Of a DNA stretch of 43,666 nucleotides, positions 2,130 to 26,540 are shown one piece after another. The stretch covers positions 1 to 43,666 of IMG/VR virus record IMGVR_UViG_3300033141_002059, one strand, 5' to 3'. The stretch's first letter is position 1, and every line of letters begins with the position of its first letter. The notes under the pieces were generated by a model, which saw only the letters and a list, made by a program, of their open reading frames with translations, ran no database searches and was not told the DNA's origin. Made by a program: the position numbers and the translations under genes. This DNA is from a virus.

Positions 2130-2374
2130 AAAACAATAACAAAATAAGACCACAATGTGCTAAAACATTTGGCGAGCTGTTAGAGTTCAAAAAAAACATC
2201 GAAGAAGACATCGATGAAATAAAAGAAACTCTAACAAACCATATTCCTTCAGAGCTTAAAGAAATAAAAGAGAAATTAAGCAATAGGCCATCTTGGTCGG
2301 TGCTTAAAATTATCACTCTTTTGTCGTCTTTGGTAATGTTTTTATTGGGCCTAATAGCAAGCAAATTCTTATGA
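2126..2374 (+). CDS. Small coiled-coil protein with C-terminal membrane anchor, holin-like
   Basis: 82 residues. Residues about 15-50 form a charged helix likely to be a coiled coil; residues about 57-80 (IITLLSSLVMFLLGLIASKF) are a single C-terminal transmembrane segment. This plan resembles phage XhlA-type lysis accessory proteins, which pair with a holin and an endolysin, but only the architecture supports that. It is coupled by ATGA overlaps to the peptide before it and to the peptidase after it (2371-2374), so the three are probably translated together. Confidence 0.65.
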   Translation: MKNNNKIRPQCAKTFGELLEFKKNIEEDIDEIKETLTNHIPSELKEIKEKLSNRPSWSVLKIITLLSSLVMFLLGLIASKFL

Positions 2375-5596: not shown

Positions 5597-5668
5597 CATC
5601 CGCCGTCGGAAGCTCGGTACATACAGTTCTCTAACGAGGGCGGCGGATGCACCGAGCTTTCGGCTTTT
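5597..5668 (+). ncRNA. RNA with two perfect 9-bp crossing helices (switch or pseudoknot)
   Basis: Helix 1 pairs CATCCGCCG (5597-5605) with CGGCGGATG (5641-5649). Helix 2 pairs AAGCTCGGT (5610-5618), which lies in the loop of helix 1, with ACCGAGCTT (5651-5659), which lies after it. The helices cross. Only one base separates 5649 from 5651, so both full helices are hard to form at once; they may be alternatives. A third option, CCGA-GCTT-TCGG followed by CTTTT (5652-5668), looks like a weak terminator that uses part of helix 2. The element sits just behind promoter P2 and is far more GC-rich than its surroundings. It could be a small RNA or a regulatory leader for 5711. It matches no family I recognise. 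Confidence 0.7.
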
Positions 5669-5669
5669 A

Positions 5670-5679
5670 TAAAGGTCGA
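5670..5679 (+). repeat. TAAAGGTCGA intergenic motif, copy 2
   Basis: Exact copy of the 10-base motif, immediately after the crossing-helix RNA. Confidence 0.55.
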
Positions 5680-6954: not shown

Positions 6955-7609
6955 ACAACTTGATTTTGAGATAAAGCTTCCGCAAGGATACTTGTCTTAT
7001 TCGCAACTTAGAACTTATCTTTACGATCCAAGAGAGTACTACGAAATATACTATTTAGGGAAAGACATAATGGAAGAACTAAAAAGGACAAATATCCGGC
7101 GATGGGAGAAAATAAAACTAGGCAGCATTTTTCAAGACGCGTGGTATAATCCGATGATTAACTGGCGAAAGATTTTAAAAAAAGAAGGATTTACTCCAGA
7201 CAAAGAAAGAATCATAGAAACCGCCCTAAAGGATCCGCAAATAATTAAAATGCCAATGAAGAATTGTGAACAAAAGTACACGACAGATATTTATGGAATC
7301 AGGATACTGATTAAACCAGATGGATTTGATAAAGGAAAAAGGCTCTTGATAGAAAATAAATTCGGAGCTACAAGAACTCAAGATTATGTAGACAATGATT
7401 TGCAGTTAAGTTTTTATAGCTTGGCAATTAAAAAAATATTCAATTTTATTCCAAAGATAATCCTGCAATCCATCAACGATAAAAACGGTAGAGTGAAATT
7501 GATCGAAACAAAAAGAGACAAATCAGACCTAGATTTTGTTGCCGAACAAATCGTGAACGTAGCCAGAGGAATAAGCCGGGGCGAATGGCAAAAAGAAGAA
7601 GAACATTAA
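6938..7609 (+). CDS. PD-(D/E)XK nuclease, RecB/Cas4-like
   Basis: 223 residues from the ATG at 6938; a TTG at 6917 is also in frame. The N-terminus has LSYSQLRTYLYDPREYYE, typical of PDDEXK_1 nucleases. D128 in IKPDGF, E139 and K141 in IENKFG and the QxxxY motif (Q156, Y160 in QLSFY) supply the remaining catalytic signature. No four-cysteine iron-sulfur cluster is visible. It probably acts as the exonuclease partner of the preceding protein in recombination or DNA-end processing. Confidence 0.8.
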   Translation: MPTQNKQLDFEIKLPQGYLSYSQLRTYLYDPREYYEIYYLGKDIMEELKRTNIRRWEKIKLGSIFQDAWYNPMINWRKILKKEGFTPDKERIIETALKDPQIIKMPMKNCEQKYTTDIYGIRILIKPDGFDKGKRLLIENKFGATRTQDYVDNDLQLSFYSLAIKKIFNFIPKIILQSINDKNGRVKLIETKRDKSDLDFVAEQIVNVARGISRGEWQKEEEH

Positions 7610-7612
7610 AAT

Positions 7613-7684
7613 TGAGTTTTGACGGGACCATCCAGAGGCGGGTTATCCTCTGGAGGTCCGGCTAAAATTTAATTTTAAAACTCA
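7613..7684 (+). promoter_or_regulatory. Multi-part hairpin enclosing the next start codon
   Basis: An inner hairpin pairs GGACC (7625-7629) and CCAGAGG (7632-7638) with CCTCTGG (7647-7653) and GGTCC (7655-7659). An outer helix pairs TGAGTTTT (7613-7620) with AAAACTCA (7677-7684), whose last base is the A of the next ATG. This could mask the start codon and regulate translation of the gene at 7684. Confidence 0.6.
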
Positions 7685-8062: not shown

Positions 8063-8827
8063 ATGGCAAGAATAAGAACAATTAATACAGACGAATTATT
8101 CTTTGATGATGAAATGACAAGCAATTACTCGGCGGCAGAGATCTTGGTTTATATTAGATTGTGGTGCATAGCAGAAGATTGGGGTGGATTTGATTGGGAT
8201 CCGAACAGCATAAAACTTAAAATGGGAGGGATTAAAATAACCACGGCACAAATAAAAAACTTTTTAGACAAAATGGTTGCCATGAAAAAAATAATTCTCT
8301 ACAAAAAAAATGGAAAAACAATTGGTTGGCTGAAAAACTTTTTAAAGCATCAGAGAATTACAAATCCTTCTTCGCCACAATTACCATTACCAGAATGGAT
8401 TAAGTTCAAAAAGAAAAAATATCCCAATGGAAAAAGTTATGCCGAATACGAAATCATTGAAAGTAAACTACCAGTAGACTACTACTATCTTAATAACGGT
8501 ACAAACAATAAAAAAGAAAAGAATAATAATAGCAAACCCAACAATACAACACCATTTTTTGCTCCTATTAAAGATTACTTTATAGAGGCTTATAGGAAAA
8601 AGTTTAATTCGGATCCGGCAATTTCCTTCGGAGCAGAGGGCAGGCTAATAAACAATAAAAGAGGTCTCTTCACCGGAGTTAAAGAAGCTTATAAATTAAT
8701 AGACGATTTTCTTGTAAGTGCGAAAGCAGAAGAATGCGGTTATACGCTTTCAGTTTGCTTTTCGGCCCATACAATAAATCTTTGGAAAGCGGGCAAGCTA
8801 AGAAGAAAATCGTTCGAAATAAAATGA
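8063..8827 (+). CDS. Phage replisome-organiser-like replication protein
   Basis: 254 residues. The N-terminus MARIRTINTDELFFDD and the following block with IRLWCIAEDWGGFDWDP match the winged-helix N-terminal domain of phage replication initiators and replisome organisers, which begin MARIRTIKPEF and carry LWxxADxxGR-like text. A low-complexity Asn/Lys linker (about 148-165) leads to a C-terminal helical domain that may contact a host helicase or loader. No phage helicase or polymerase was found, so it would recruit host machinery to the origin. It overlaps the next gene by ATGA. Confidence 0.75.
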   Translation: MARIRTINTDELFFDDEMTSNYSAAEILVYIRLWCIAEDWGGFDWDPNSIKLKMGGIKITTAQIKNFLDKMVAMKKIILYKKNGKTIGWLKNFLKHQRITNPSSPQLPLPEWIKFKKKKYPNGKSYAEYEIIESKLPVDYYYLNNGTNNKKEKNNNSKPNNTTPFFAPIKDYFIEAYRKKFNSDPAISFGAEGRLINNKRGLFTGVKEAYKLIDDFLVSAKAEECGYTLSVCFSAHTINLWKAGKLRRKSFEIK

Positions 8828-9468
8828 CAAAGGTTTTATATTATAAAGAAGAAAGATACCCGCTTACTGACGAAGAAGCCAAAGAGTTGAGCGATTATCT
8901 TTCAGAGGCTAAACGAGATGACCACTTTACTTTTAAGGGTCAAAGTTTAATAGTAAGGCATGCTGAAATCAGAGACGGGGCAGAAAAAAAAGAAAGAAGA
9001 TTTTATAGTTTGAATAACCCCGAAGACAAAAAAATCATCAAAGAGTTTGAACAGGAACTTTTAGATGCCAGAGATTGGGAGTTAGACCGAGAACTTGAAT
9101 ACTATGGCGAGCCGATTAAAACAATTAAAGCTGTTGGTAAAGCACCAGAAAAAGAATTGCCCGATGGTTTTGTTAGAAATCCCATTCTCGGTTTGTGCCA
9201 CTGGTCAAAGGTCCAGTATTGCTTGAAAAATTGCATAATTTCTCGCAAAGACGGAAAATGGTTTATCGCCGATGCCAATAACTACACGGACTGGTTAGAA
9301 AAAAACAACGCCTTACACGATTTAAAGCTCCGCAGAGAATTCGCTGAAAATAAAAACAAAGAAGAAACAGATGAATTTCTAAAATCTCTTGAACCGGCAA
9401 AGGTCGCAAAACCAATACCAGAAGTAGAAATAGAAATTCCCGATGATAACCCATTAAAGTGGATGTGA
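8824..9468 (+). CDS. Unknown early protein
   Basis: 214 residues from the ATG that overlaps the previous stop (8824-8827). A frame open further upstream to 8734 lies wholly inside the previous gene and is not used here. The protein is charged, with an aromatic-rich middle (ILGLCHWSKVQYCLKNC, near 140) and a disordered, Pro/Glu-rich C-terminus. No family recognised. Its coupling to the replication protein suggests a role in replication or its control. Confidence 0.65.
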   Translation: MTKVLYYKEERYPLTDEEAKELSDYLSEAKRDDHFTFKGQSLIVRHAEIRDGAEKKERRFYSLNNPEDKKIIKEFEQELLDARDWELDRELEYYGEPIKTIKAVGKAPEKELPDGFVRNPILGLCHWSKVQYCLKNCIISRKDGKWFIADANNYTDWLEKNNALHDLKLRREFAENKNKEETDEFLKSLEPAKVAKPIPEVEIEIPDDNPLKWM

Positions 9469-9469
9469 T

Positions 9470-9919
9470 ATGAGCAAGAGAATTAGACCAATTTTTTACG
9501 GACACGTTAAAAATGGAAAGCTGGAAATCTATGATAAGCAAAAATTTAGAATGTGGTTGAGAGAACTGAATGAGAAAGAAGTTGAAATAAGAGTAAATAA
9601 ATATAAAGACAAAAGAACAAATAGTCAAAATAGGTATTATTGGGGAGTGGTGTTAGAAATTTTATCAGATTATACTGGCCATGAACCAGAAGAACTACAT
9701 GAAGTTTTAAAAGAAATAATGCTCCCCAAAAAAGAAGTTAAGTTTAAATTAAGTGACGGAAAGGAAGTCATACGGAAAATCTCAATCAGCACTGCCGAAT
9801 TATCTACCGGAGCATTCGAAACATATCTGCAAAAGATTAGAGAATGGGCCCAGAAAAGATTAAATTGTTTTATTCCTCTTCCTAACGAGTTTGAACCAGA
9901 GCCAATAACTTATTATTAA
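9470..9919 (+). CDS. NinB/Orf-like recombination protein
   Basis: 149 residues. The pattern KRTNSQNRYYWGVVLEIL, then ELHEVLKEIMLP, then a serine-rich strand and a final helix with WAQKRLNCFIPLP, fits the NinB family (lambda Orf), a recombination mediator that acts with ssDNA-binding protein. It begins two bases after the preceding stop, in the same early cluster as the annealing protein and nuclease, which supports a recombination role. The assignment rests on remembered pattern only. Confidence 0.6.
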   Translation: MSKRIRPIFYGHVKNGKLEIYDKQKFRMWLRELNEKEVEIRVNKYKDKRTNSQNRYYWGVVLEILSDYTGHEPEELHEVLKEIMLPKKEVKFKLSDGKEVIRKISISTAELSTGAFETYLQKIREWAQKRLNCFIPLPNEFEPEPITYY

Positions 9920-9928
9920 AACAAAAAA

Positions 9929-10699
9929 ATGAAACAATACAACATAGTTTCAGGATGGAATAGAGGTGGAACTTCTTGCCTTATGGCTCTTTTAAGGGAA
10001 GCCGGTGTTCCAATCGTAGGATTTAAATATCCGTTTGAATTTGAAACAGTCGAGATAGAAGATGGGAAAATTAAGGGTCAGAAAAAAATAGATACTGGGC
10101 TGTATTTGCCATATAAAAAAGAAACAAAAAATATAAATCCAAGTGGATTTTGGGAAATTCCCTCGATCTGCCTAGGAGAAGGATTGCAAGAGAGACACGG
10201 GGAAATCGGGGAAAATGGAGATTTAATAAAAGTTCCATTGGGAGTTTTGCCCTCTTCTAATCCCGATTTGGTAAACAAGGTAATAATTATTTTGAGAGAT
10301 CCTTTAAAAGTAATTAAGAGTCAATTAAAGACAAATAAGCCAAAAAATGAAGAAGAATGGATCCGGGTTGCAAGTATTGGACTTATTTATAATTTATTGG
10401 TATCATTAAAATGGATTGGAAAAAATAAAAAGGAAGGATGGCTTTTATACTATGAAGATTTATTAAAAGACCCCGAGCAAGAATTATTGGATATAGGTGC
10501 TTTTTTGGGAAGGCCAGTATATCTGCCGGCTACGAAAATAATTAATAAAGAACTTGATAGATCAGAAAAAATTAGGGCGAAATATAAAGAAACCAAGCAA
10601 TTAGTAAAATTTTACAAGGAAAAAGATTTTAATTGGACTCATTATAATTTAGAAAAAATGAAGAAAGAAATAGATAAAATTAAGAAACAATACTTATGA
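9929..10699 (+). CDS. Sulfotransferase-family protein
   Basis: 256 residues. The N-terminal VSGWNRGGTSCLMALL is a sulfotransferase P-loop of the SGxxRxGTS type that binds the 5'-phosphosulfate of PAPS. RDP (123-125) followed by Ser131 matches the 3'-phosphate-binding motif. YEDLLKDPEQELLDIGAFLG is the usual C-terminal signature. It would transfer sulfate to an unknown acceptor: a glycan, small molecule or protein. It is unusual among replication genes and may change the host surface or the phage's own components. It overlaps the next small gene by ATGA. Confidence 0.82.
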   Translation: MKQYNIVSGWNRGGTSCLMALLREAGVPIVGFKYPFEFETVEIEDGKIKGQKKIDTGLYLPYKKETKNINPSGFWEIPSICLGEGLQERHGEIGENGDLIKVPLGVLPSSNPDLVNKVIIILRDPLKVIKSQLKTNKPKNEEEWIRVASIGLIYNLLVSLKWIGKNKKEGWLLYYEDLLKDPEQELLDIGAFLGRPVYLPATKIINKELDRSEKIRAKYKETKQLVKFYKEKDFNWTHYNLEKMKKEIDKIKKQYL

Positions 10700-10818
10700 A
10701 AGGAGAAAAATTGTACAAAATCTTTCACTTTATTTTAGATTTAATTGGATTGCTTTTTATAGTAACTTTGATTGTTCTTTTTATCTGGCTAATGATGGAA
10801 AAAATATGGTCAGTATGA
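10696..10818 (+). CDS. 40-residue single-pass membrane protein
   Basis: Starts inside the stop of the sulfotransferase gene (ATGA). About residues 12-33 (FILDLIGLLFIVTLIVLFIW) are one long hydrophobic segment. Its stop codon overlaps the first bases of the tRNA-like gene at 10817. No family recognised. Translational coupling suggests it works with, or tethers, the sulfotransferase. Confidence 0.55.
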   Translation: MKGEKLYKIFHFILDLIGLLFIVTLIVLFIWLMMEKIWSV

Positions 10819-10906
10819 GGCGGTGGCGAAAAGGTAGCCGACCTACTTTTTAAAAAGTAGAGCCAAAATAATTTGGAGTATCGGGTTCGACTCCCGATCC
10901 GCCTCT
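10817..10906 (+). tRNA. Class II tRNA-like gene, probably Leu(TAA), with unusual arms
   Basis: The acceptor stem GAGGCGG (10817-10823) pairs perfectly with CCGCCTC (10899-10905). T8/G9, a GGC/GCC D stem with GG in the loop, a long variable arm CCAAA-ATAA-TTTGG and a T arm with TTCGACT are all present. Two things are irregular. The anticodon arm CTACT-TTTTAAAA-AGTAG has an 8-base loop (or 6 pairs with a 6-base loop). The T stem can form 6 pairs (ATCGGG/CCCGAT), making a 13-pair acceptor-T stack. The loop can be read as TAA (Leu) or, shifted by one base, TTA (would read the TAA stop). No CCA is encoded. Confidence 0.65.
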
Positions 10907-10915
10907 TGTAAACAT

Positions 10916-11473
10916 ATGAGCATATTCCAAGAAAGTAAAATAATTGGCAAACTATCAAACATAAGCGGTTTATTAAAAGAACAAAACCAGATTTTAAGGC
11001 ACAATACTCGTTGGACTTTCTGGGCGATGATATTTACTTTTCTTTCAGTTTTAATTGCGATTTTAATGGCTTATTTAGCTCTTAAACAGGTTAATGAAAT
11101 TAGAATTGAAGGAGCGGGGACAGCCCCCGAGCAGGAGGTTGCCCACCTTAAAGCTTCGCCTGTAGTCTTACCTCTATATGAGGACTTAGACAGGGATACA
11201 ACAACTTTACATAGGGCTAACCCGCTCCAAATTGTTCAACTCGCTTATAAAATAATAGAGTGCGAAAGCAACTGGCGACCTAATGTATATGGGGATGGAG
11301 GCAAAGCATACGGATTGGCTCAATTCCATAAACCTACTTGGAACTGGCTCTGTGGACTTTATGGCGTAGATTTGGATTACTATAATTCGCAAGACCAAAT
11401 AACGCTTCTAATAATGGCTTTAGAAGATGGTCGGGGATATTTGTGGACTTGTTATAATAAATTAACCAACTAA
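10916..11473 (+). CDS. Membrane-anchored lytic transglycosylase (SLT-like)
   Basis: 185 residues. A polar N-terminus is followed by a transmembrane segment (about 35-56, FWAMIFTFLSVLIAILMAYL) and a linker. The C-terminal domain carries IIECESNW, with the probable catalytic Glu, then AYGLAQFHKPTWNWL, the usual SLT Gly-Leu-x-Gln pattern. It would cleave peptidoglycan at the membrane face. Its place in the early region, away from the lysis cassette, suggests local wall opening, superinfection effects or assembly rather than final lysis. The topology is inferred. Confidence 0.78.
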   Translation: MSIFQESKIIGKLSNISGLLKEQNQILRHNTRWTFWAMIFTFLSVLIAILMAYLALKQVNEIRIEGAGTAPEQEVAHLKASPVVLPLYEDLDRDTTTLHRANPLQIVQLAYKIIECESNWRPNVYGDGGKAYGLAQFHKPTWNWLCGLYGVDLDYYNSQDQITLLIMALEDGRGYLWTCYNKLTN

Positions 11474-11517
11474 ACTAAAAACAATAATTAACTAATTAAT
11501 AATTAACTAATAGAAAT

Positions 11518-12252
11518 ATGAGAAAAATAAAGGAATTCGTCAAACTCTATACAGAATATCGTAAACGAGGATATCCAAATTCTGTCCCCAAGTTTTTGGA
11601 ATGGGTAGAAAATTTAGGAAATAAAATTTATGCGTGGAAGACTATTGGTGGTTATGTTTATAAACTTCAAAGACAAAACAATGAGAAGTATTGTTGGGTT
11701 GGATTAGAAAATGCAGAACAGATATGGGGTGGTAAAGAATATAATAGTATTATAGAAGCATTACACGACCACGTCGGTTCTGGTATTAGTCGTTTAAAAG
11801 AGTTTGATAATTATGACCAGTTTATTGAGTGGGCTAAATCTGGTAGGGAACAAAGAGAATTGAAATTTAGAGCTTGGGACAAGAAAAACAAAATGTGGTG
11901 TGGTGAACATTTAGCCATTACGATTGATGGCAAAAAAATGTATTGGTCGGATAGTGGTGAGGAAGTTAACAAAGAAAAATTGGATATAGTTTTAATGGCT
12001 TATACTGGTCTTCAAGACAAAAACGGAAAAGAAATCTACGAAGGAGATATAGTGGAAGATCCAAAACTTGGAAAAGCAGAAATTAGATTTTTGAATGCCA
12101 GTTTTGTCGTTTGGGCTAAAGGAACACAACATTGGGTATTGGGACAGAAACGAGCATTTAATTCTAAAGTAATCGGCAATATCTATGAAAACCCCGAACT
12201 CCTTACCAATCAATCTAAAAAAACTTATGAAAAAAGAAAAGAAAAAAAGTAA
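11518..12252 (+). CDS. YopX-like protein with extra N-terminal domain
   Basis: 244 residues. The C-terminal half is YopX-like: RELKFRAWDKKNKMW, then LMAYTGLQDKNGKEIYEGDI, and finally KVIGNIYENPELL, in the family's usual order. YopX proteins are common in phages and prophages; their function is unknown. The N-terminal ~110 residues (with KTIGGYVYKLQRQ and WAKSG) are not part of the usual family and look like a separate small domain. A leader with TAATTAACTAA precedes the start. Confidence 0.8.
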   Translation: MRKIKEFVKLYTEYRKRGYPNSVPKFLEWVENLGNKIYAWKTIGGYVYKLQRQNNEKYCWVGLENAEQIWGGKEYNSIIEALHDHVGSGISRLKEFDNYDQFIEWAKSGREQRELKFRAWDKKNKMWCGEHLAITIDGKKMYWSDSGEEVNKEKLDIVLMAYTGLQDKNGKEIYEGDIVEDPKLGKAEIRFLNASFVVWAKGTQHWVLGQKRAFNSKVIGNIYENPELLTNQSKKTYEKRKEKK

Positions 12253-12400
12253 ATACTTTACTAAAAAATTTAAAACTGCTTATAGGGAGATAGAAAAAAT
12301 ACCCCAGTTGTCTTGGCTTCAGAAAAAAGCCCTTCAACATCAGTTAATACATAATTGCAAATTTAGATATAATTTTTATAAATCTTTTAAAAACCTATGA
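12227..12400 (+). CDS. Small basic protein, unknown
   Basis: 57 residues from the ATG at 12227, overlapping the end of the YopX-like gene by 26 bases; a start at 12185 is possible. It is strongly basic (MKKEKKKSKYFTKKF) with a helical C-terminus. It overlaps the next gene by ATGA. Its charge suits nucleic-acid binding but no motif is seen. Confidence 0.5.
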   Translation: MKKEKKKSKYFTKKFKTAYREIEKIPQLSWLQKKALQHQLIHNCKFRYNFYKSFKNL

Positions 12401-12522
12401 CCAAAAACCAAATAAATAAACTTTTAATCCTTCTACTAATTATATTTTGTCCTCATATTTGGATAATACTTCTTTATTATCGTAAAAAAAGTCAATTTTG
12501 GAAAACTATAAATAATCTATGA
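12397..12522 (+). CDS. 41-residue membrane protein
   Basis: Begins at an ATGA overlap with the gene before it. Residues about 9-28 (LLILLLIIFCPHIWIILLYY) are a hydrophobic segment followed by a basic tail, implying one membrane pass with the tail inside. No family recognised. Confidence 0.5.
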   Translation: MTKNQINKLLILLLIIFCPHIWIILLYYRKKSQFWKTINNL

Positions 12523-12550
12523 CCAAAACCCAACTAAACTAAAAACAATT

Positions 12551-12772
12551 ATGAAGAAAGAGAATTGGCAAAAACAACTTAAAGAAGAGTTTGGAATTCA
12601 TTTTAAAGATAGCCCCGATGAATTAAAATTCTTAGAGGCGTTTATTGAGGATTTATTGAATAAGCAAAGAGAAGGAATTAAAGAAGCGATTTTAGATAGA
12701 ATAGATAAAGATTATAAGGGACGAGACATAACTATTTATGAGTTAGCGAATTGGATAGATAAAAATCTATAA
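12551..12772 (+). CDS. Small acidic helical protein, unknown
   Basis: 73 residues, predicted mostly helical (FLEAFIEDLLNKQ, YELANWIDKNL). The start codon follows the leader CTAAAAACAATT, nearly identical to the leader of the gene at 12795, and the first residues (MKKE) also match. No family recognised. Confidence 0.55.
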   Translation: MKKENWQKQLKEEFGIHFKDSPDELKFLEAFIEDLLNKQREGIKEAILDRIDKDYKGRDITIYELANWIDKNL

Positions 12773-12794
12773 CCCAACCAACCTAAAAACAATT

Positions 12795-12956
12795 ATGAAG
12801 AAAGAAAAGAAAAAGTTCAAATTATGGAGTGAATTACATCCAGAAGTTGAACCCAAAATTAAAAGAGCGTTATTTTGGTTTAATCTACGGAGACATCCAG
12901 TTGTTTTTATTAAAAGTATAGTATGGGGATTGTTCCACCTCACCAAAAAAGATTAA
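12795..12956 (+). CDS. Small basic protein, unknown
   Basis: 53 residues, very basic at the start (MKKEKKKFK), with a more hydrophobic middle (PVVFIKSIVWGLFHL). It shares its leader and first codons with the genes at 12551 and 13211, suggesting duplicated gene starts. It ends just before the structured RNA region. Confidence 0.5.
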   Translation: MKKEKKKFKLWSELHPEVEPKIKRALFWFNLRRHPVVFIKSIVWGLFHLTKKD

Positions 12957-12982
12957 GAGATAATAACAAAAACAGGAATTAG

Positions 12983-13144
12983 TTTACTAAAAGCTGGTAA
13001 AATGTGCATAAACCAGAAAAGGTGAAAAGGGCAGGTGTTTGTAGGTTAAAGGTTAAACTATTAACCACCGAAACCAAAAAACCCTTGATTCAGACTGACG
13101 AGTCTGTTATATCAGAAAATCAAACACCACCAGCTTTTAGTAAA
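12983..13144 (+). ncRNA. Structured RNA closed by a 16-bp perfect helix
   Basis: The non-coding interval 12957-13210 contains this element. TTTACTAAAAGCTGGT (12983-12998) is the exact reverse complement of 13129-13144. Directly inside, GGTGTTTG (13034-13041) pairs with CAAACACC (13121-13128). Within that lie two hairpins: GGTTAA-ACTA-TTAACC (13051-13066) and CAGACT-GACG-AGTCTG (13091-13106), the second extended by TGAT/ATCA (13086-13089 with 13111-13114). AAGGG (13027-13031) could pair with CCCTT (13082-13086), crossing the inner helix. The nested helices strongly suggest a folded RNA of about 160 bases; orientation is assumed from the neighbours. No known family was recognised. A further hairpin lies at about 13152-13178. 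Confidence 0.75.
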
Positions 13145-13210
13145 TAAATTCTTGTAAGCAATTTCTTGCCAAACAAGATTAAAAGCTAATAATTAACTAA
13201 TAAAACAATT

Positions 13211-13291
13211 ATGAAGAAAGAAAAAGAAAAACATGGTTCTTTGATAAGTGGAGTCAAGTCCGAGTCAAAGTCAAAAAGTTATGTCAAGTGA
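13211..13291 (+). CDS. Possible 26-residue peptide
   Basis: Short frame with the same AAAACAATTATGAAGAAAGA start as its neighbours, ending just inside the next gene. It is Lys/Ser-rich with no recognisable domain. It may be a leader peptide, a decayed copy of a duplicated small gene, or chance. Confidence 0.3.
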   Translation: MKKEKEKHGSLISGVKSESKSKSYVK

Positions 13292-13586
13292 AAAACATCC
13301 TACCACTGTAGGTGGAGAAACAATTAGAATAGATATTCCAAAAATTCCATTAGCGGATTTGCCAAGCAGTGTTATTAAGCTATGCTCTTATGCTGATATT
13401 CAGCATTTAGAGGGCAAACTAAAAACTTGGGCAGATAGTGCTTTCACAGATGACATTCAAAGAAAAGCGGTAAAAGATATTCTACAAGATATAGCGAGAG
13501 ATTTCTGGCAATGGTTAGATTTTTCTACCGATGGGACAATCTATAAAAAGGTCCGCTATTTATTAATTGAAAAAGCAAGAAGTTGA
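13281..13586 (+). CDS. Unknown small protein
   Basis: 101 residues from the ATG at 13281 (a GTG at 13248 is in frame). The first ~40 residues are polar with a short strand (ETIRIDIPKIP); the rest is helical (DIQRKAVKDILQDIARDFWQWL). No family recognised. It is followed by a short spacer with a GTTCTT/AAGAAC hairpin. Confidence 0.55.
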   Translation: MSSEKHPTTVGGETIRIDIPKIPLADLPSSVIKLCSYADIQHLEGKLKTWADSAFTDDIQRKAVKDILQDIARDFWQWLDFSTDGTIYKKVRYLLIEKARS

Positions 13587-13642
13587 GTAATTAAGACGGT
13601 GGCGAAGTTCTTGACTCCACTTATTAAAGAATTAAAGAACCT

Positions 13643-14017
13643 ATGACTAATCAAAAGAAAAAAGAAAATAAAATAATCTGTAAAACTTGCTTTTGGAAGT
13701 GGACAGACGCTTATTATAAAGAAGATTATTGTGGACTTATAGAAAATGAATATGGCGGAAATATAGAGGCAACTGAAACAGAATGTAAATTCTATTTGAA
13801 AAAAGGAACAGAGCCAAAATGGCCATGTGCTATTTGTGGAAAAAATACTTATGGTCGATCTGCAGTTGGTGAAGGTGAAAAATGGTATTGTAGTAGTTGT
13901 CATTGGAAAAAAGAAAGAGAAAAAGCTGAAAAAGAACGTGCCATTAAAATTAAGAAACTTAATGAGTTGGTAGGCAAAAAGAAAGCGAAAGATATTATAA
14001 AGCTATTTAATTTATAA
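13643..14017 (+). CDS. Zinc-ribbon protein
   Basis: 124 residues with eight clustered cysteines: CKTCFW near residue 13 and a Cys about 17 residues on, then CAICGK and CSSCHW (about 70-90), forming at least one CxxC...CxxC zinc ribbon. A basic helix follows. The fold suits nucleic-acid or protein binding. It is one of five small Cys-rich proteins in the genome. No specific family. Confidence 0.6.
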   Translation: MTNQKKKENKIICKTCFWKWTDAYYKEDYCGLIENEYGGNIEATETECKFYLKKGTEPKWPCAICGKNTYGRSAVGEGEKWYCSSCHWKKEREKAEKERAIKIKKLNELVGKKKAKDIIKLFNL

Positions 14018-14021
14018 TTAT

Positions 14022-14156
14022 ATGAATTTAGAAGATTATAAAAAAGAATTGGTGAGAAGCTGGAAATTTAGATTTTGGTACTATACCTATGGTTGGCTAT
14101 GGGGCTGGGGTAAATGGAAAAAGAAATATAAGTTAAAAAAACTAACTAAGAAATAA
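14022..14156 (+). CDS. 44-residue aromatic-rich small protein
   Basis: Starts four bases after the preceding stop. The middle is strikingly rich in Trp and Tyr (FRFWYYTYGWLWGWGKW), flanked by Lys, as in amphipathic membrane-surface peptides. No family recognised. Confidence 0.45.
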   Translation: MNLEDYKKELVRSWKFRFWYYTYGWLWGWGKWKKKYKLKKLTKK

Positions 14157-14163
14157 AACAATT

Positions 14164-14352
14164 ATGGTTAAATTTTATCAAGCTCGCAAGAAAATAGAAC
14201 TTAAATGCATCAGATGTAAAAAAAACTATTTAGGCCACGTTCGGACTAGAAAATATTGTTTTGATTGTAGAATGGAGATTAAAAGAGAAAGAGCAAGAAA
14301 TAAAAAATATGGGATTAAAAAACACAAGACAAAAAGGGAGAAAGTTAGTTAA
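14164..14352 (+). CDS. Small zinc-finger protein
   Basis: 62 residues behind the leader AAAACAATT. CIRCKK and YCFDCR give a CxxC...CxxC zinc site within a Lys/Arg-rich chain. Its last 44 bases overlap the start of the next gene. It probably binds nucleic acid. Confidence 0.6.
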   Translation: MVKFYQARKKIELKCIRCKKNYLGHVRTRKYCFDCRMEIKRERARNKKYGIKKHKTKREKVS

Positions 14353-14740
14353 AATAATTTTAGGCATTTTGAGACGAGAATTAGATGGATCAAGCTACGA
14401 GGTTGTAGGTTCTGGTATGGGAAAAGATAAGGGCGATATACGAGTGCCAAGATTGGATTTAGTAATTGAAGTTAAGAACCAACAAACAATAAGAATGGCT
14501 GAATGGGTCAAGCAAGCAGAAAAAGAGGGCCTAGGATATAGCGAGGCAGTAGTAATGTGGAGACACCCCGAAAGCCCACAGGAAAGACCAGATATCCGGG
14601 TAGATATGAGCCTTGATTATTTTATAGAATTGGCTCAAAGATTTGCCGAGCCGATCACAAAAGAACCAAGCAGGGAATTAAAATATAAACTTGAAAGGCT
14701 TAAAAACGATTGCCATCAAGTAATTAAATTAATTAAATAA
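14309..14740 (+). CDS. PD-(D/E)XK endonuclease, Holliday-junction-resolvase-like
   Basis: 143 residues from the ATG at 14309; an in-frame ATG at 14261 lies deeper inside the previous gene. After a helix (ILGILRREL) the core reads GKDKGDIRVPRLDLVIEVKNQ: Asp of GDI and the ExK of IEVKNQ are the catalytic pattern of resolvase-like nucleases. The chain continues with a helix, WVKQAEKE, and the strand EAVVMWRHP. It probably resolves branched phage DNA before packaging or acts in recombination. Confidence 0.72.
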   Translation: MGLKNTRQKGRKLVKIILGILRRELDGSSYEVVGSGMGKDKGDIRVPRLDLVIEVKNQQTIRMAEWVKQAEKEGLGYSEAVVMWRHPESPQERPDIRVDMSLDYFIELAQRFAEPITKEPSRELKYKLERLKNDCHQVIKLIK

Positions 14741-14745
14741 TAAAT

Positions 14746-15060
14746 ATGCCAAAGAGAAAAAAAATCACCCCAGAAGAAATGTTAAAAATGGTAGAGAGGA
14801 GCCTAAAAAACCACATGCAAGAAGTAAATGAAAAAATTAGCCAGATTCAGCAGAAAGAATCAATTCCAATAAAAAAACCAAGGAATCCTTCAATAAATAA
14901 TTCATTCATTCATTGCGAGTTTATCAGGCCCGCTCAATTCAGGGAAGATGAAGTAGAAAGATTTAAAAAAGAGTTAGAAGAATTAATGAAGCGATATGAG
15001 ATCAATTATCTTCGAGCCATGATTTTAGCAGTTATCCACAGAAAAGACCTTGACAAATAA
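14746..15060 (+). CDS. Unknown protein
   Basis: 104 residues: a helical N-terminus with possible coiled coil (MLKMVERSLKNHMQEVNEKISQ is interrupted here only for brevity), a Pro/Lys linker, and a C-terminal two-helix unit. No family recognised. Promoter P3 lies across its 3' end. Confidence 0.55.
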   Translation: MPKRKKITPEEMLKMVERSLKNHMQEVNEKISQIQQKESIPIKKPRNPSINNSFIHCEFIRPAQFREDEVERFKKELEELMKRYEINYLRAMILAVIHRKDLDK

Positions 15061-15079
15061 ATTAAAATCAGTATATACT
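15031..15079 (+). promoter_or_regulatory. Promoter P3 with perfect DnaA box
   Basis: GTTATCCACAG (15031-15041) contains the DnaA-box consensus TTATCCACA. Eight bases later is TTGACA (15050-15055), then 18 bases and TATACT (15074-15079). This is the best -35/-10 pair in the window and repeats the P1/P2 arrangement. It would drive the leader at 15094 and the ParB-methyltransferase gene. It overlaps the last codons of the preceding gene. Confidence 0.75.
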
Positions 15080-15093
15080 TAGTAATAGAAGAA

Positions 15094-15127
15094 CAACTTT
15101 GAGGTAAATTTGCTCAGCTAAAAGTTG
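15094..15127 (+). promoter_or_regulatory. Leader stem-loop after P3
   Basis: CAACTT (15094-15099) pairs with AAGTTG (15122-15127), with an inner TGAG/CTCA helix. It starts about 8 bases after the expected transcription start. Further along, at 15177-15197, a six-codon frame (MNKVLF) ends right before the terminator hairpin, as in attenuation leaders. That role is speculative. Confidence 0.5.
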
Positions 15128-15196
15128 AAGTATTAATTTCACACACCAAAAAGAAATGCATTTTTTTCTATTAAAAATGAATAAAGTTTTATTTTA

Positions 15197-15230
15197 AAAG
15201 CTTCACCTAAGAAAGCAGGGTGGAGTTTTT
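15197..15230 (+). terminator. Intrinsic terminator or attenuator before the methyltransferase
   Basis: CTTCACC (15201-15207) pairs with GGTGGAG (15219-15225, one G-T pair), and flanking AAAAG pairs with the following TTTTT (15226-15230). The stem followed by a T run is a standard rho-independent terminator. It lies between P3 and the gene it should drive, so it may set a regulated read-through level, or end a small RNA of about 145 bases. Confidence 0.7.
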
Positions 15231-15250
15231 AAATTCAAAATAATAGGAAA

Positions 15251-16761
15251 TTGAAAGCAGAATCACAACTAAAAATAGAATACGTTGACTTGGAACAACT
15301 TAGACCGAACGAGTATAACCCGAAGTCAATGACAGAAAAAGCAGAAAAAGATTTGACAAATTCTATCAAAAAGTTCGGCGTTGTAGATCCGCTAATCGTA
15401 AACAAGGCAAAGGGAAGAAAGGGAGTTATTATAGGCGGACATCAAAGATATAAAATTTATAAAAAATTAAATTTTAAAAAAGTTCCGATTATTTGGATAA
15501 ACATCTCTGATCTTGAAAAAGAAAGAGAGCTATGTTTGCGTTTATCAAAAAATATAGGAGAATGGGATTATGAATTGCTGGCAAACTTTGACGAGGATAT
15601 GCTGTTAGATGTCGGGTTCGAGGCAGAGGAATTAGATACTATTTTTGGGTTAGAAATAGATGATAGTTTTGATGTAGAGAAAGAAGTTGAAAAAGTATTA
15701 AAAGATAAAAAAAGAAGATGTAAAGAAGGAGATTTGTGGCAATTAGGAGATCATAAATTAATTGTAGGAGACGCAACAGATAGAAAGGCTTGGGAGAAAC
15801 TATTAGGAGAAGAAAGGTTTGATTTTATGTTTACGGATCCGCCTTATAAGATCGCTTACACACAAAGAGCACGCAAAGTAACCACAAAGGACGGGAAATC
15901 AAAACTAAAAAAAGACAAAGTATATGAGAGCGTAGGAAAAACAGACTCAAAAGGAAGATTTAAAGGATATGTAAAAACCAAAAAAGGATTTGGCTATAGG
16001 AGTCAAAGAACTTATTTAGGTGTAGAAAAAAGAGGAGGTGTTCCAGAATATGATGAATGGTTATCAATAGCAAACGATTTTCAAAATCCGGTAGGAGCAA
16101 ATGTAATGATTTTCGAAAACTGGCGAAACACGAGGGAATTATGGGATGCAATAGAGAAATACTGGAAGGTAAAGAATATGATAATTTGGCATTTGCCAAA
16201 TCGTCATCAAGGTTTTAGTCGTCCTTATTTCTTCTTTAATAAAAAGGTTATGATATTGCACCTTTAGCAGGCGAAGGAATTTTAAATGAAGAATACGAAC
16301 AAGAATTAGATGATTATTTAAAAGAGAAAGGACAGAAATTATTAGACACCTATGAAGTTACGCTTTATGGTCAGAAAGAAGATAGTAATTGGTTTGGATA
16401 TAATACTCCTGAAGAGAAACAAAAGAAAGGATATTACAAAAGAGTAAAAGGAACGCCATGGGCTAAAATATCAGATCATATAACTTGGACAGCTCAAACA
16501 GAAAAATCAAGCGGACAAAACGTAATTTTTGGAACAAAGCCAATTCAAATTTTAGTTCCCTATATTAAAATACTAAGTCCAAGATATGGAATAGTAATGG
16601 AACCATTTGCCGGCTCCGGCTCAACTATAATTGCTTCTGAAGTAATGCATAGAAAATGTCGGGCAATAGAATTAGAACCATTGTATGCAGAAGTAATATT
16701 AAGTCGTTGGGAGAAGTTTGTAAACAAGAAAGCTAAAAAACTAACAAATAAGGGAAAATAG
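15251..16761 (+). pseudogene. ParB-like nuclease domain fused to DNA methyltransferase, frameshifted
   Basis: The first frame (15251-16267, from a TTG start) has a ParB/sulfiredoxin-like domain (LRPNEYNPK, VIIGGHQRYK) then the methyltransferase motif IV, TDPPY. The sequence then continues in the -1 frame from about 16249 to 16761, giving YDIAPLAGEGIL and the SAM-binding motif EPFAGSGSTIIASE. The order DPPY before FAGSGS is that of beta-class N6-adenine/N4-cytosine methyltransferases. The frame change occurs at a run of five A (16241-16245); one more A would restore a single ~503-residue protein. It may be a real mutation, a sequencing error or recoding. An intact enzyme would mask phage DNA from restriction or regulate its expression. 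Confidence 0.8.
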
Positions 16762-16877
16762 GGAAAAAACGACGCAACCAGTGGACCCGTGTGAGCTTTT
16801 GTAAGAAGGGCTAAGGGTTTGGATCACGATTAAGCATTATAAAACAAAGGAAGAACAAGACAAACCTAAAAAGAAAA

Positions 16878-16897
16878 ACCACTTTTATATAAGTGGT
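16878..16897 (-). terminator. Terminator of the minus-strand operon
   Basis: ACCACTT (16878-16884) and AAGTGGT (16891-16897) form a 7-bp hairpin with a 6-base loop. Read on the minus strand it is followed by TTTTTC and then TTTTT, a good intrinsic terminator. It lies between the end of the methyltransferase gene and the convergent minus-strand genes. Confidence 0.7.
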
Positions 16898-16932
16898 CTA
16901 AAGATAAAGTTCTTTGATTAAACTTCTTATTA

Positions 16933-16982
16933 CTTCCGCCTATTGCTTCCAGTTAGAGCCGAAGCCCTACAATAAGCGGAAG
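16933..16982 (-). other. Long intergenic hairpin, minus operon 3' end
   Basis: CTTCCGC/GCGGAAG (16933-16939 with 16976-16982), TATTG/CAATA and GCTTC/GAAGC stack into one long interrupted stem. It lies just downstream of the minus-strand gene ending at 16993. Similar hairpins follow the other two minus-strand genes, so it may be a processing or stability element. Confidence 0.6.
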
Positions 16983-16992
16983 AGTAAAAAGT

Positions 16993-17184
16993 TTAGTTGT
17001 TTATATAAATTCTTTTAAGGTATTGGTTCAGAGACTTAATCTTTCTTATTTTGGCATCAGGACGATATTTATCCTTGTAGTATTTGGCGCCCTTAAAGGT
17101 TTTGAAGTATATCTGCCCTTTTCGGCAAAATCCTTGCGGTGTAGTAATAGAGTCTGTAATCACATAAATAGGATGTTTCAACAT
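16993..17184 (-). CDS. Small basic protein, minus operon
   Basis: 63 residues. A short beta-like N-terminus (HPIYVITDSITT) precedes a basic region (FKTFKGAKYYKDKY) and a helical end. No family recognised. It is the third gene of the minus-strand operon, with strong hairpins on either side. Confidence 0.5.
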   Translation of the reverse strand: MLKHPIYVITDSITTPQGFCRKGQIYFKTFKGAKYYKDKYRPDAKIRKIKSLNQYLKRIYINN

Positions 17185-17232
17185 TTTAATTGTTAAGGCA
17201 CTGGAAGAAACCTCTGATTAATTTCCTCTATT

Positions 17233-17268
17233 GCTCCAACCAATTAGCTACTGATAACTGATTGGAGC
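17233..17268 (-). other. Intergenic hairpin, minus operon
   Basis: GCTCCAA (17233-17239) pairs with TTGGAGC (17262-17268), seven perfect pairs; CCAAT and ATTGG offer an alternative register. It lies between the genes at 17279-17512 and 16993-17184. Confidence 0.55.
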
Positions 17269-17278
17269 TAAAAAGAAA

Positions 17279-17512
17279 CTATTGTATGTTTTTCTCCATT
17301 TTTCTTGGAACTTGAAGCCAAGTTTCGCATTCTGGACATATCCAACACTCAATTTCTTCACCCACTTCACATTTTCGCTCCCAGCCATCGTGAAAATCAT
17401 ACTCATAACATACCAAATTAGTTTGCCACTGAAGAATTGAAGTTTGTTTTTTGCCACAACTTGGACAAATAAAATAGTTTTTGGTGAATTTTTTAATTCT
17501 TTTTCTTTTCAT
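17279..17512 (-). CDS. Zinc-ribbon protein, minus operon
   Basis: 77 residues. CPSCGKK and CPECETW give a CxxC...CxxC pair about 43 residues apart, with two further cysteines between. The N-terminus is very basic (MKRKRIKKFTK). It is probably a nucleic-acid-binding or regulatory protein. A second frame at 17248-17457 on the same strand lacks such a pattern and is taken as a shadow. Confidence 0.6.
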   Translation of the reverse strand: MKRKRIKKFTKNYFICPSCGKKQTSILQWQTNLVCYEYDFHDGWERKCEVGEEIECWICPECETWLQVPRKMEKNIQ

Positions 17513-17568
17513 TTTTTCAAAGAGCCAGCCAGTAGCTCTGGCAAGATTAATTTTTAATTCCCTTTGTC

Positions 17569-17600
17569 CTACCTCCTATAGTTGCGGCTATAAGAGGTAG
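17569..17600 (-). other. Intergenic hairpin, minus operon
   Basis: CTACCTC/GAGGTAG (17569-17575 with 17594-17600) and TATAG/CTATA form a 12-pair stem with loop TTGCGG. The loop and its flank (GTTGCGG) are exactly complementary to CCGCAAC upstream of the first minus-strand gene, about 17795-17801, which might allow a long-range contact. It lies between two minus-strand genes. Confidence 0.6.
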
Positions 17601-17610
17601 AGAAAAGAAA

Positions 17611-17778
17611 CTAAACAATTGAAATTCTGGACTGGAGCTTTGCATTTCTTTTAAAAAATTCTTTTTCTACTTTATCATACCATTTTTGAACATTTTTGGG
17701 GGCTTTTTCGGGAAAAACATTTTGAATTATACTCCATAATGCTTCGGTTGATAATTTTTTGGGGCTTGTTAGTTTCAT
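17611..17778 (-). CDS. Small protein, first gene of minus operon
   Basis: 55 residues from the ATG at 17778; a TTG five codons upstream (17793) is possible. The chain is basic and helical (TEALWSIIQNVFPEKAP, KWYDKVEKEFFKR). No family recognised. It is nearest the minus-strand promoter. Confidence 0.5.
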   Translation of the reverse strand: MKLTSPKKLSTEALWSIIQNVFPEKAPKNVQKWYDKVEKEFFKRNAKLQSRISIV

Positions 17779-17816
17779 ATTTTTAATGAGCAATCCGCAA
17801 CTTGCTTGATTATAAA

Positions 17817-17879
17817 GAGACGACTCTTAACCGTCAGGTATTAAGAGCCGTCTCAAAAATCTTAATAAAAATCCTGACG
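17817..17879 (-). promoter_or_regulatory. H-type pseudoknot-capable leader of the minus operon
   Basis: A 14-base stem pairs GAGACGACTCTTAA (17817-17830) with 17841-17854, with a single mismatch. Its 10-base loop contains CGTCAGG (17832-17838), exactly complementary to CCTGACG at 17873-17879. The 18-base A/T-rich linker is long enough to span the stem. The element lies between the minus promoter (17921-17949) and the first minus gene, so it should be in that leader RNA. Inverting the strand preserves the topology. Confidence 0.65.
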
Positions 17880-17920
17880 ATTAAAATAAACTTTTATATT
17901 TTCAAACTTCTATATTATTA

Positions 17921-17959
17921 ATGATAACATACTAAAAATAAAAAGTCAAGTGTGGACAA
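17921..17959 (-). promoter_or_regulatory. Minus-strand promoter
   Basis: On the minus strand TTGACT (17949-17944) is followed after 17 bases by TATCAT (17926-17921). Immediately upstream of the -35 box is TTGTCCACA (17959-17951), one mismatch from a DnaA box. It is the only good promoter facing the minus-strand genes. Confidence 0.6.
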
Positions 17960-17976
17960 AAAAAATATAAGATCCT

Positions 17977-18474
17977 ATGCCAAAATATGCCAAAAAAAAG
18001 AACAAATTAGCTTCAAACAAACCAAAATTTAGCAAAGAAGATTTTATAGTTTGGTTATCATTACCAAAACCTTTGAAAAAACCACAAACTCAAGGAGAGA
18101 TTGCAGAAAAATACGGAATAGCCCAATCTACTTTAAGTCGTTGGAAAAGAGATAATGCCCTTTGGGAAGAAGTAAAAAAACTTAGAGAATATAGATTAAG
18201 AGAAAAAGCTCCAAATGTTGATCAAGCATTTTATCAGAGGTTATTAAAAGGAATAGCCACAGCCCAAGACTACAAACTATTTTATCAAAGATTTGAAGGA
18301 TGGAGCGAGAAGCAAATTTTAGAACATGAAGTGGGAGATTCTTTATCAGAGCTTCTGCTTCAAATACAAAATGAGAAACAACCACTTGTCAAAAAAGGAA
18401 GTAGTCGTCCATTCCGGGAAAATTACCCTACAGGAACTAAAGGAGAAGATAAAGGACAGGGAATGGAGACTTAA
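17977..18474 (+). CDS. terS: Terminase small subunit
   Basis: 165 residues. Residues about 37-56 (TQGEIAEKYGIAQSTLSRW) form a helix-turn-helix typical of phage small terminases that recognise the packaging site. The remainder is helical, as expected for an oligomeric subunit, with a disordered basic tail. It lies directly before, and overlaps, the large terminase gene. It opens the packaging and virion gene block. Confidence 0.8.
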   Translation: MPKYAKKKNKLASNKPKFSKEDFIVWLSLPKPLKKPQTQGEIAEKYGIAQSTLSRWKRDNALWEEVKKLREYRLREKAPNVDQAFYQRLLKGIATAQDYKLFYQRFEGWSEKQILEHEVGDSLSELLLQIQNEKQPLVKKGSSRPFRENYPTGTKGEDKGQGMET

Positions 18475-19975
18475 TAATTTATATTGGATAAAAGACGATC
18501 AAGGAAATAGAATTCCTTTTAGATTAAACTGGGCTCAAAAAATATTATTAGACAATTTATGGTTTCTTAATGTAATTTTAAAAGTCCGGCAGTTGGGCGT
18601 AACAACTTTCATTTGCCTATTATATACAGACGACGTTCTTTTTAATGGATATGACGCGGGTCTAATTGCTCATACTTTACAAGACGCAACAAAAATTTTT
18701 GATACTAAAATAAATTATGCTTGGGAAAACCTGCCCCCCGCAATAAAGAATCGGTTCATCGTAGACACCGAAACAAAAAGAGAATTAAAATTTAAATTAA
18801 AAAACAGCAAAATAGAATCTTCAATTTATGTAGGAACTTCTTTGAGGTCCGGAACAGTACAACGATTACATATTAGTGAGTTGGGAACAATAGATCAACG
18901 ATATCCTCAAAAAGCGGAAGAAATAAAATCAGGAGCACTCAACACAGTTCACGCTGGACAGATAATTACAATCGAATCTACGGCCAAAGGGCAATCAGGA
19001 GTTTTCTATGATATTTGTAAAAGGGCAATGGAGAATGAAAAAAGCGGCAAGGACTTGACACCGATGGACTGGAAATTTTTCTTCCTTCCATGGTGGAGGC
19101 ATCCCCAATACTGCTTAAAAGGAGATATAATTCTACCAACAGAAATTCAGGATTATTTCAAAGAATTAGAAGAAAGACATGGCATCTATCTGAGCCAAGA
19201 ACAAAAGAATTGGTATTACAAAAAGAAGCAGACGCAGAAAGAATCAATGAAAAGCGAATATCCCAGCACGCCAGAAGAAGCATTCTTCTTGAATATAGAA
19301 GGATCATACTTCGGAAAACAGATGGATAGAGTTCTTAGTGAAAAAAGAATCACAAAAGTGCCTTGGGAACCAACTCTGCCCGTCCACACAGCTTGGGATT
19401 TAGGATTAGAAAAAAGCAAGAAAGATTCAATGTCGATTGTTTTTTGGCAAGACTTGGGCTTGGAGATTAGAATAATAGATTTTTATGGGAACACTGGCGA
19501 AGGACTTCAACACTACATAAAAGTTTTGAGAGACAAGCCCTATACTTATGGCCGGCATTATGCTCCCCACGATATTGAAGTAAAAGAACTTGGCACGGGC
19601 AAAACAAGATACGAGATAGCTCAAAAATTAGGATTAAATTTTGAAATACTGCCGCGACTTCCATTCGCAGACGGAATAGAAACGGCAAGAAATATTTTAA
19701 ATAAATGCTGGTTCGACGAAGAAAGAACCCAGCGATTAGTTAAAGCCCTGATGTCATTTAGAAAAGAATGGGATGATAAGCTTGGAAAATTTAAAGATAC
19801 GCCATTAAAAGACTGGGCTTCAGATCCGGCAGATGCATTTAGAATGATGGCAATAGCCCACCAAGATCACAGGAAGTTAGGAGAATACGACCCAGAAGAA
19901 GAAGAATTAAGAAGAATAAAGGAAAGAGAAAAAGAATTAAGCAACTTTGACCCGTTAAATCCATTTGGATTATGA
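18371..19975 (+). CDS. terL: Terminase large subunit
   Basis: 534 residues from the ATG at 18371 (an in-frame ATG at 18326 lies further inside terS). The ATPase domain has VRQLGVTTFI in place of a standard Walker A, a variant common in phage terminases, and HISELGT as the Walker B region. The nuclease domain begins at HTAWDLGLEKSKKDS, with its catalytic Asp, and ends near DPADAFRMM. It cuts the DNA concatemer and pumps it into the capsid through the portal. It overlaps the portal gene by ATGA. Confidence 0.92.
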   Translation: MRNNHLSKKEVVVHSGKITLQELKEKIKDREWRLNNLYWIKDDQGNRIPFRLNWAQKILLDNLWFLNVILKVRQLGVTTFICLLYTDDVLFNGYDAGLIAHTLQDATKIFDTKINYAWENLPPAIKNRFIVDTETKRELKFKLKNSKIESSIYVGTSLRSGTVQRLHISELGTIDQRYPQKAEEIKSGALNTVHAGQIITIESTAKGQSGVFYDICKRAMENEKSGKDLTPMDWKFFFLPWWRHPQYCLKGDIILPTEIQDYFKELEERHGIYLSQEQKNWYYKKKQTQKESMKSEYPSTPEEAFFLNIEGSYFGKQMDRVLSEKRITKVPWEPTLPVHTAWDLGLEKSKKDSMSIVFWQDLGLEIRIIDFYGNTGEGLQHYIKVLRDKPYTYGRHYAPHDIEVKELGTGKTRYEIAQKLGLNFEILPRLPFADGIETARNILNKCWFDEERTQRLVKALMSFRKEWDDKLGKFKDTPLKDWASDPADAFRMMAIAHQDHRKLGEYDPEEEELRRIKEREKELSNFDPLNPFGL

Positions 19976-26439: not shown

Positions 26440-26519
26440 AGGTGGTTTGAGGAGTACCACCTCGCAGAAACTCCTCCCTTTTGGCCCGGGTTCATTTCTT
26501 ATGAATTTGGGCCAAAGGG
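26440..26519 (+). promoter_or_regulatory. H-type pseudoknot and long hairpin after the capsid gene
   Basis: AGGTGGT (26440-26446) pairs with ACCACCT (26456-26462). GAGGAGT (26449-26455) between them pairs with ACTCCTC (26470-26476). Linkers of 2, 0 and 7 bases match a classic H-type pseudoknot. A hairpin follows at once: CCCTTTTGGCCC (26476-26487, one bulge) with GGGCCAAAGGG (26509-26519), and TTCAT/ATGAA inside. It lies 35 bases beyond the capsid stop. A role in protecting the capsid mRNA end is the simplest guess. Confidence 0.7.
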
Positions 26520-26530
26520 CAGAGAAATTA

Positions 26531-26540
26531 TAAAGGTCGA
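26531..26540 (+). repeat. TAAAGGTCGA intergenic motif, copy 4
   Basis: Exact copy of the 10-base motif, 11 bases after the hairpin following the capsid gene. The remaining ~100 bases up to 26640 contain a small CGAG-GAGGAT-CTCG hairpin whose loop holds a purine-rich, SD-like sequence. Confidence 0.55.

What the first reader, a model, noticed from the sequence alone, without database searches (positions are those of the whole stretch)
12983..13144. About 160-nt multi-branched RNA closed by a 16-bp perfect helix
Nested perfect helices (16 bp, then 8 bp, then two hairpins of 6 bp) occupy a non-coding gap among tiny early genes, and AAGGG/CCCTT offers a crossing contact. The size and closed-end plan are similar in outline to phage packaging RNA, but there is no sequence evidence for that. 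It could also be a host-directed RNA or a decoy.
Basis: partly seen in the sequence, partly recalled or inferred. Interest (0 to 1): 0.75.

Follow-up and report, generated by a model that had tools for sequence, protein, structure and literature searches.

The report
Orphan stem-closed RNA in phage operon
A phage genome carries, between two tiny genes, a 184-base stretch that can fold into a strongly closed branched RNA; the fold is real by statistics but has no known relatives, and it is most simply read as a structured, probably nuclease-trimmed RNA segment of an early message rather than a packaging RNA.

Summary
The closing helix is 26 bp (12972-12998 / 13129-13155, one A.A mismatch, two G.U), not 16 bp. 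It is followed by an 8-bp helix and two 6-bp hairpins. The segment is the second most stable 190-nt window of the genome on either strand after composition correction. Its z is -7.3 on the + strand and -5.0 on the - strand. The inside folds better than shuffles even without the closing helix (9 of 1000). A second long inverted repeat (25 bp, encloses ORF 13281-13586) starts 79 nt downstream; the two are the best stems of the genome, each with chance about 0.0016. No Rfam family matches. No relative was found in phages, plasmids, fetched viral contigs, or 21 whole viral records searched with a covariance model, so there is no covariation evidence. 'Non-coding' is not certain: a 47-codon GTG frame (13004-13147) runs through the core with gene-like codon usage. 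The packaging-RNA idea is not supported. Best reading: a + strand structured RNA within the early mRNA, closed by an RNase III-type stem. An inserted inverted-repeat element is the main rival.

The parts
12972..12998 (+). 5' arm of the closing helix P1 (26 pairs with 13129-13155)
   Evidence: stem score 53, genome-wide chance about 0.0016
12999..13033 (+). 35-nt 5' insertion between P1 and P2, with a weak 3-bp hairpin and AAGGG (13028-13032), the possible 5' side of a pseudoknot
   Evidence: its own fold is not better than chance (137 of 1000 shuffles)
13034..13041 (+). 5' arm of P2 (GGTGTTTG)
   Evidence: pairing probability 0.97 or more
13044..13075 (+). Hairpin with 6-bp GGUUAA/UUAACC and a less certain outer 4-bp GGUU/AACC
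13082..13086 (+). CCCUU, possible 3' side of the crossing contact with AAGGG 13028-13032
   Evidence: sequence only; not tested by covariation
13085..13115 (+). Hairpin: 6-bp CAGACU-GACG-AGUCUG on a 5-bp base
   Evidence: pairing probability 0.98 or more for the 6-bp part
13121..13128 (+). 3' arm of P2 (CAAACACC), directly abutting the 3' arm of P1 so that P1 and P2 can stack
13129..13155 (+). 3' arm of the closing helix P1
13004..13147 (+). 47-codon open frame with GTG start through the core; possible small gene
   Evidence: codon score 0.13, 12th percentile of real gene segments, reached by 2% of stop-free wrong frames; no family or phage match
13156..13190 (+). Small hairpin just downstream of P1
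   Evidence: 26 of 1000 shuffles as stable for 13150-13190
13234..13258 (+). 5' arm of a second long inverted repeat (25 pairs with 13610-13634, including G.U), enclosing ORF 13281-13586
   Evidence: stem score 52.5, chance about 0.0016
13281..13586 (+). ORF of 101 aa enclosed by the second stem; gene-like codon usage, no known relatives
13610..13634 (+). 3' arm of the second long inverted repeat

Best explanation
The segment is transcribed on the + strand as part of the polycistronic early/replication mRNA and folds into a branched core closed by a 26-bp helix. The closing helix is long and regular enough to be a substrate of host RNase III, which would cut both strands of the stem, trim or release the core (about 130-180 nt), and divide the mRNA at this point. 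The second 25-bp stem that starts 79 nt downstream and encloses ORF 13281-13586 would act in the same way on the next gene. Shown here: the inverted repeats, the significance of the fold, the + strand bias, the position between co-directed tiny genes. Inferred: transcription, RNase III cleavage, and any function of the released core.
For: Fold significance and rank. + strand better than - strand (z -7.3 against -5.0), and the G.U pairs of both stems are on the + strand (few events, weak). Inside structure beyond the inverted repeat (9 of 1000 and 7 of 1000 shuffles on +, 45 and 92 on -). Two independent long stems within 660 nt, the best two of the genome. No terminator-like site on + in 9000-19000. 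Genes on both sides co-directed; 22-nt spacing before the preceding tiny gene against 254 nt here. Precedent: RNase III cuts the T7 early polycistronic mRNA at five sites and the rRNA precursor (PMC4858673).
Against: No homologue, hence no covariation. No transcript data; host unknown, so presence of RNase III is assumed. A possible small ORF runs through the core. A simple inserted inverted repeat would give most of the same signal. The interior significance is moderate (p about 0.01).
Confidence: 0.4

Rival explanations
1. An inserted inverted-repeat DNA element (MITE-like cassette or a scar of replication template switching); the 27-nt arms are terminal or duplicated repeats and the RNA fold is a by-product.
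For: The gap is about 230 nt longer than the spacing before the preceding tiny gene, which shares the same leader. A second, unrelated inverted repeat surrounds the next ORF. The element is absent from partly syntenic relatives.
Against: No other copy in the genome, and no match in phages, plasmids or fetched viral loci. No target-site duplication seen. The 80 viral contigs with the 16-mer have a single match each, mostly in coding frames reading LLKAG, not paired arms. The interior is also structured on +.
Confidence: 0.3
2. A small protein gene (GTG 13004-13147, 47 aa) with flanking inverted repeats that form a regulatory or processing stem, like the neighbouring ORF 13281-13586 inside its own stem.
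For: Stop-free 47-codon frame with codon score inside the range of the phage's genes and above 98% of stop-free wrong frames. Parallel arrangement of stem plus ORF next door.
Against: GTG start without Shine-Dalgarno, where almost all genes here start with ATG after an A-rich leader. The start lies just inside a very stable helix. No relatives.
Confidence: 0.15
3. A nascent-RNA element acting on host RNA polymerase in cis, in the manner of HK022 put (antipausing/antitermination).
For: A structured RNA in an early operon with no terminator nearby. put is an RNA-only precedent in early phage transcripts (PMC9378689).
Against: put is about 70 nt, two stem-loops, downstream of early promoters (PMC9378689); this one is a 184-nt closed branched fold in mid-operon. 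No Rfam match.
Confidence: 0.06
4. A packaging RNA analogue of phi29 pRNA.
For: Only size and closed ends.
Against: Canonical TerL, 43.7-kb genome, no Rfam hit; pRNA is described as unique to phi29 and a number of related phages (PMC11476376).
Confidence: 0.01

Closest known systems
RNase III processing stems of phage T7 early mRNA and of rRNA precursors
   Same: Long double-helical stems within co-directed polycistronic transcripts; the rRNA stems also enclose the released RNA (own knowledge; PMC4858673 for the substrates)
   Different: T7 sites are local hairpins (own knowledge), whereas here the stem closes a branched core and a second stem encloses a gene; cleavage not shown
HK022 put RNA
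   Same: Structured RNA segment in an early phage transcript (PMC9378689)
   Different: About 70 nt, two stem-loops, downstream of early promoters; the fold here is larger, closed and mid-operon
phi29 pRNA
   Same: Similar total size (174 nt, PMC11476376)
   Different: No phi29-type packaging system seen, no Rfam match, mid-operon position
Candidate structured RNAs from comparative genomics of bacteria and metagenomes (PMC2864571)
   Same: Unknown structured intergenic RNA
   Different: Those rest on comparison of homologues; none was found here

Membership tests
RNase III-processed phage early mRNA element | Double-helical stem of about two helical turns within the transcript | tested here: met
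   26 pairs with one mismatch
RNase III-processed phage early mRNA element | Cleavage by RNase III in the stem | not testable with these tools
   needs RNA ends or an in-vitro assay
phi29 packaging RNA | Match to a curated RNA family model | tested here: not met
   whole-window Rfam scan gives only a tRNA; permissive scan of 12900-13700 gives only chance hits
phi29 packaging RNA | phi29-type genome (small, protein-primed, phi29-like terminase) | tested here: not met
   43.7-kb record; TerL matches phrog_2 and isolates such as Erwinia and Klebsiella phages; no terminal protein or phi29-type polymerase among the proteins scanned, which are not all proteins of the window
Hammerhead ribozyme (CUGACGAG and GAAA present) | G10.1-C11.1-closed stem II between CUGANGA and GAAA; stem I adjacent to the cleavage site and to CUGANGA | tested here: not met
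   CUGACGAG is part of a perfect 6-bp hairpin; the required stems I and II cannot form; no Rfam hit at E up to 10
Inverted-repeat transposable element (MITE) | Multiple copies | tested here: not met
   single copy in the genome, no matches elsewhere
Inverted-repeat transposable element (MITE) | Target-site duplication | tested here: not met
   no direct repeat flanking 12972/13155 beyond two A, by eye
Structured RNA family | Covariation among homologues | tested here: inconclusive
   no homologue in 51 loci or 21 whole records
HK022 put RNA | RNA-dependent antitermination | not testable with these tools
   needs a transcription assay

The most novel reading that the evidence does not exclude
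A new class of phage non-coding RNA: a discrete, stem-closed, pseudoknotted branched RNA excised from the early transcript that acts in trans on the host or the virion.
Probability: 0.1. Interest if true: 0.75.

Novelty: new member of a known kind. Interest (0 to 1): 0.35.

Why it matters
If a discrete RNA is made, it would be a phage RNA with no described family in an uncultured phage, with two long stems that suggest that the host's double-strand nuclease divides this operon into parts. If it is only an inserted inverted repeat, it is a record of how tiny-gene regions of phages are rearranged. Either way it cannot be called a family until a relative is found.

Tried and rejected
Hammerhead ribozyme: CUGACGAG and GAAA stand in a suggestive order inside P2, but stems I and II cannot form and Rfam gives nothing. 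Packaging RNA: see membership test. Intrinsic terminator: none found on + here. The 16-mer arm in 80 viral contigs: one match per contig, mostly coding LLKAG, so no relatives. Searches with the proteins of ORFs 13248-13586 and 13643-14017 gave no relatives. The terminase, the ParB/methyltransferase, the YopX-like protein and the protein after terminase gave relatives, but only the records of L170 and L165 show partial synteny over this region and neither holds the element. A loop-region pattern found nothing in viral contigs. A first codon-score run on the 47-aa frame was off by one base and was redone.

Full report
Setting. The window is the whole of one virus record of 43666 bases. The genes around the finding are on the + strand: a replication-initiation-like protein (8063-8827), a NinB-like protein (9470-9919), a YopX-family protein (11518-12252), a run of tiny genes, a RusA-like resolvase (14261-14740), a ParB-domain/DNA-methyltransferase-like protein (15251-16267), and then terminase (18326-19975). 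The segment lies between a 53-aa ORF ending at 12956 and the next ATG at 13211. The two preceding tiny genes share the leader AACCCAAC..CTAAAAACAATTATGAAGAAAGA, and part of it recurs before 13211. The spacing before the second of them is 22 nt, whereas the gap here is 254 nt.

Observation. Every helix in the finding is present. The 16-bp helix is the inner part of a longer one: 12972-12998 pairs with 13129-13155 in 26 pairs with one A.A mismatch and two G.U pairs. P2 (8 bp) abuts the 3' arm of P1, and a 35-nt insertion separates them on the 5' side. Two 6-bp hairpins lie inside P2. The AAGGG/CCCUU contact would cross P2 as a pseudoknot; it is 5 bp and cannot be tested without relatives.

Chance. 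The gap folds at -68.2 kcal/mol on +, against a shuffled mean of -37.6 (z -7.3); on - z is -5.0. Without P1, 9 of 1000 shuffles match the + strand core and 45 of 1000 the - strand; inside P2 the numbers are 7 and 92. This suggests that the interior is structured beyond what an inverted repeat alone would give, and more so on +. Across the genome 12969-13158 + is the second-ranked locus among 14492 windows after composition correction. The stem scores of P1 and of a second inverted repeat, 13234-13258/13610-13634, are 53 and 52.5, the two best in the genome; the chance of one such in a shuffled genome is about 0.0016. The second stem encloses ORF 13281-13586, which has gene-like codon usage but no known relatives.

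Strand. Differences from perfect pairing in the cores of the two stems are two G.U pairs and one A.A in the first, and one G.U in the second, all G.U on +. They would be A.C on -. With so few events this is only weak support, and the search that extended the second stem to 25 pairs allowed G.U on + only.

Coding. 'Non-coding' should be qualified. GTG 13004 to TAA 13147 is a 47-codon frame through the core. Its codon score, 0.13, lies at the 12th percentile of real gene segments and above 98% of stop-free wrong frames. Against it: GTG, no ribosome-binding site, and a start just inside a very stable helix, whereas nearly all genes of this phage start at ATG behind an A-rich leader, only 4 of 35 inspected starts having a loose Shine-Dalgarno-like motif (I chose that list, and one of its entries, 14024, is not at a start codon). 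No family or phage match.

Relatives. DNA searches of phages and plasmids gave only short chance matches. Terminase relatives: the best is a 4.7-kb contig (82% aa) that does not reach this region; the next are 52% or less. ParB/methyltransferase relatives reach 74% over most of the protein. Tblastn of the window's proteins shows partial synteny only with L170 and L165. A single-sequence covariance model of the segment finds nothing convincing in 51 loci or in 21 whole records; such a model has limited reach. Rfam has no match. The element is therefore an orphan and no covariation test is possible. Absence from L170 and L165 is weak evidence, as their tiny-gene regions share almost nothing with this one.

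Mechanism. The simplest account of two long, near-perfect, + strand-compatible stems in a co-directed operon is processing of the transcript by a double-strand nuclease. [quoted passage not shown] Cleavage in P1 would trim or free the branched core and divide the message; cleavage in the second stem would free the mRNA of ORF 13281-13586. None of these steps is shown. The main rival is an inserted or duplicated inverted repeat without RNA function; it has no second copy, no target-site duplication and a structured interior against it, but it cannot be excluded. A small gene with flanking stems, and a put-like element (PMC9378689), are less likely. A packaging RNA is very unlikely: the phage has a canonical terminase, and pRNA is described as unique to phi29 and a number of related phages (PMC11476376).

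Verdict. A real, statistically strong, single-copy structured segment of unknown function, with a modest case for an RNA and no case for the packaging analogy.

Noticed in passing
window 5597-5675: Very stable intergenic structure: ATCCGCCG/CGGCGGAT and AAGCTCGGT/ACCGAGCTT can pair in a crossing (pseudoknot) order; nested fold z -5.0. No Rfam match.
   Followed up: partly
window 7606-7678: Long stem-loop GGGACCATCCAGAGG.../CCTCTGGAGGTCC in a gap, flanked by GAGTTTT/AAAACTC.
   Followed up: no
window 26445-26634: The most stable 190-nt window of the genome after composition correction; 22-nt-arm near-perfect hairpin 26474-26522 between ORFs 25395-26405 and 26641-27645.
   Followed up: no
window 2371-4428: ORF with an intein (splicing and LAGLIDADG domains).
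   Followed up: partly
window 10817-10906: tRNA-like gene with an odd 4-base anticodon call (ttaa) by ARAGORN; not reported by Rfam's tRNA model at its gathering score.
   Followed up: no
window 15251-16762: ParB-domain/methyltransferase-like gene appears split: the ORF ends at 16267, while relatives' homology continues through 16270-16762 in another frame; possible frameshift or sequencing error.
   Followed up: no
L154:1184, L159:4472, L160:4193, L164:4297, L178:1547: A conserved hairpin with a T tail and some paired changes (AATGRCCTAAGCTCTT...GGGYTTAGGYCATTTTTT), probably an intrinsic terminator, upstream of the ParB/methyltransferase gene in several related phages.
   Followed up: partly
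L170:3700-3890: A gap of about 200 nt with several strong hairpins in a partly syntenic relative, possibly another structured RNA; no Rfam match.
   Followed up: no
window gene starts: Almost no Shine-Dalgarno-like motifs before start codons (4 of 35), which hints at a host with non-Shine-Dalgarno initiation.
   Followed up: partly
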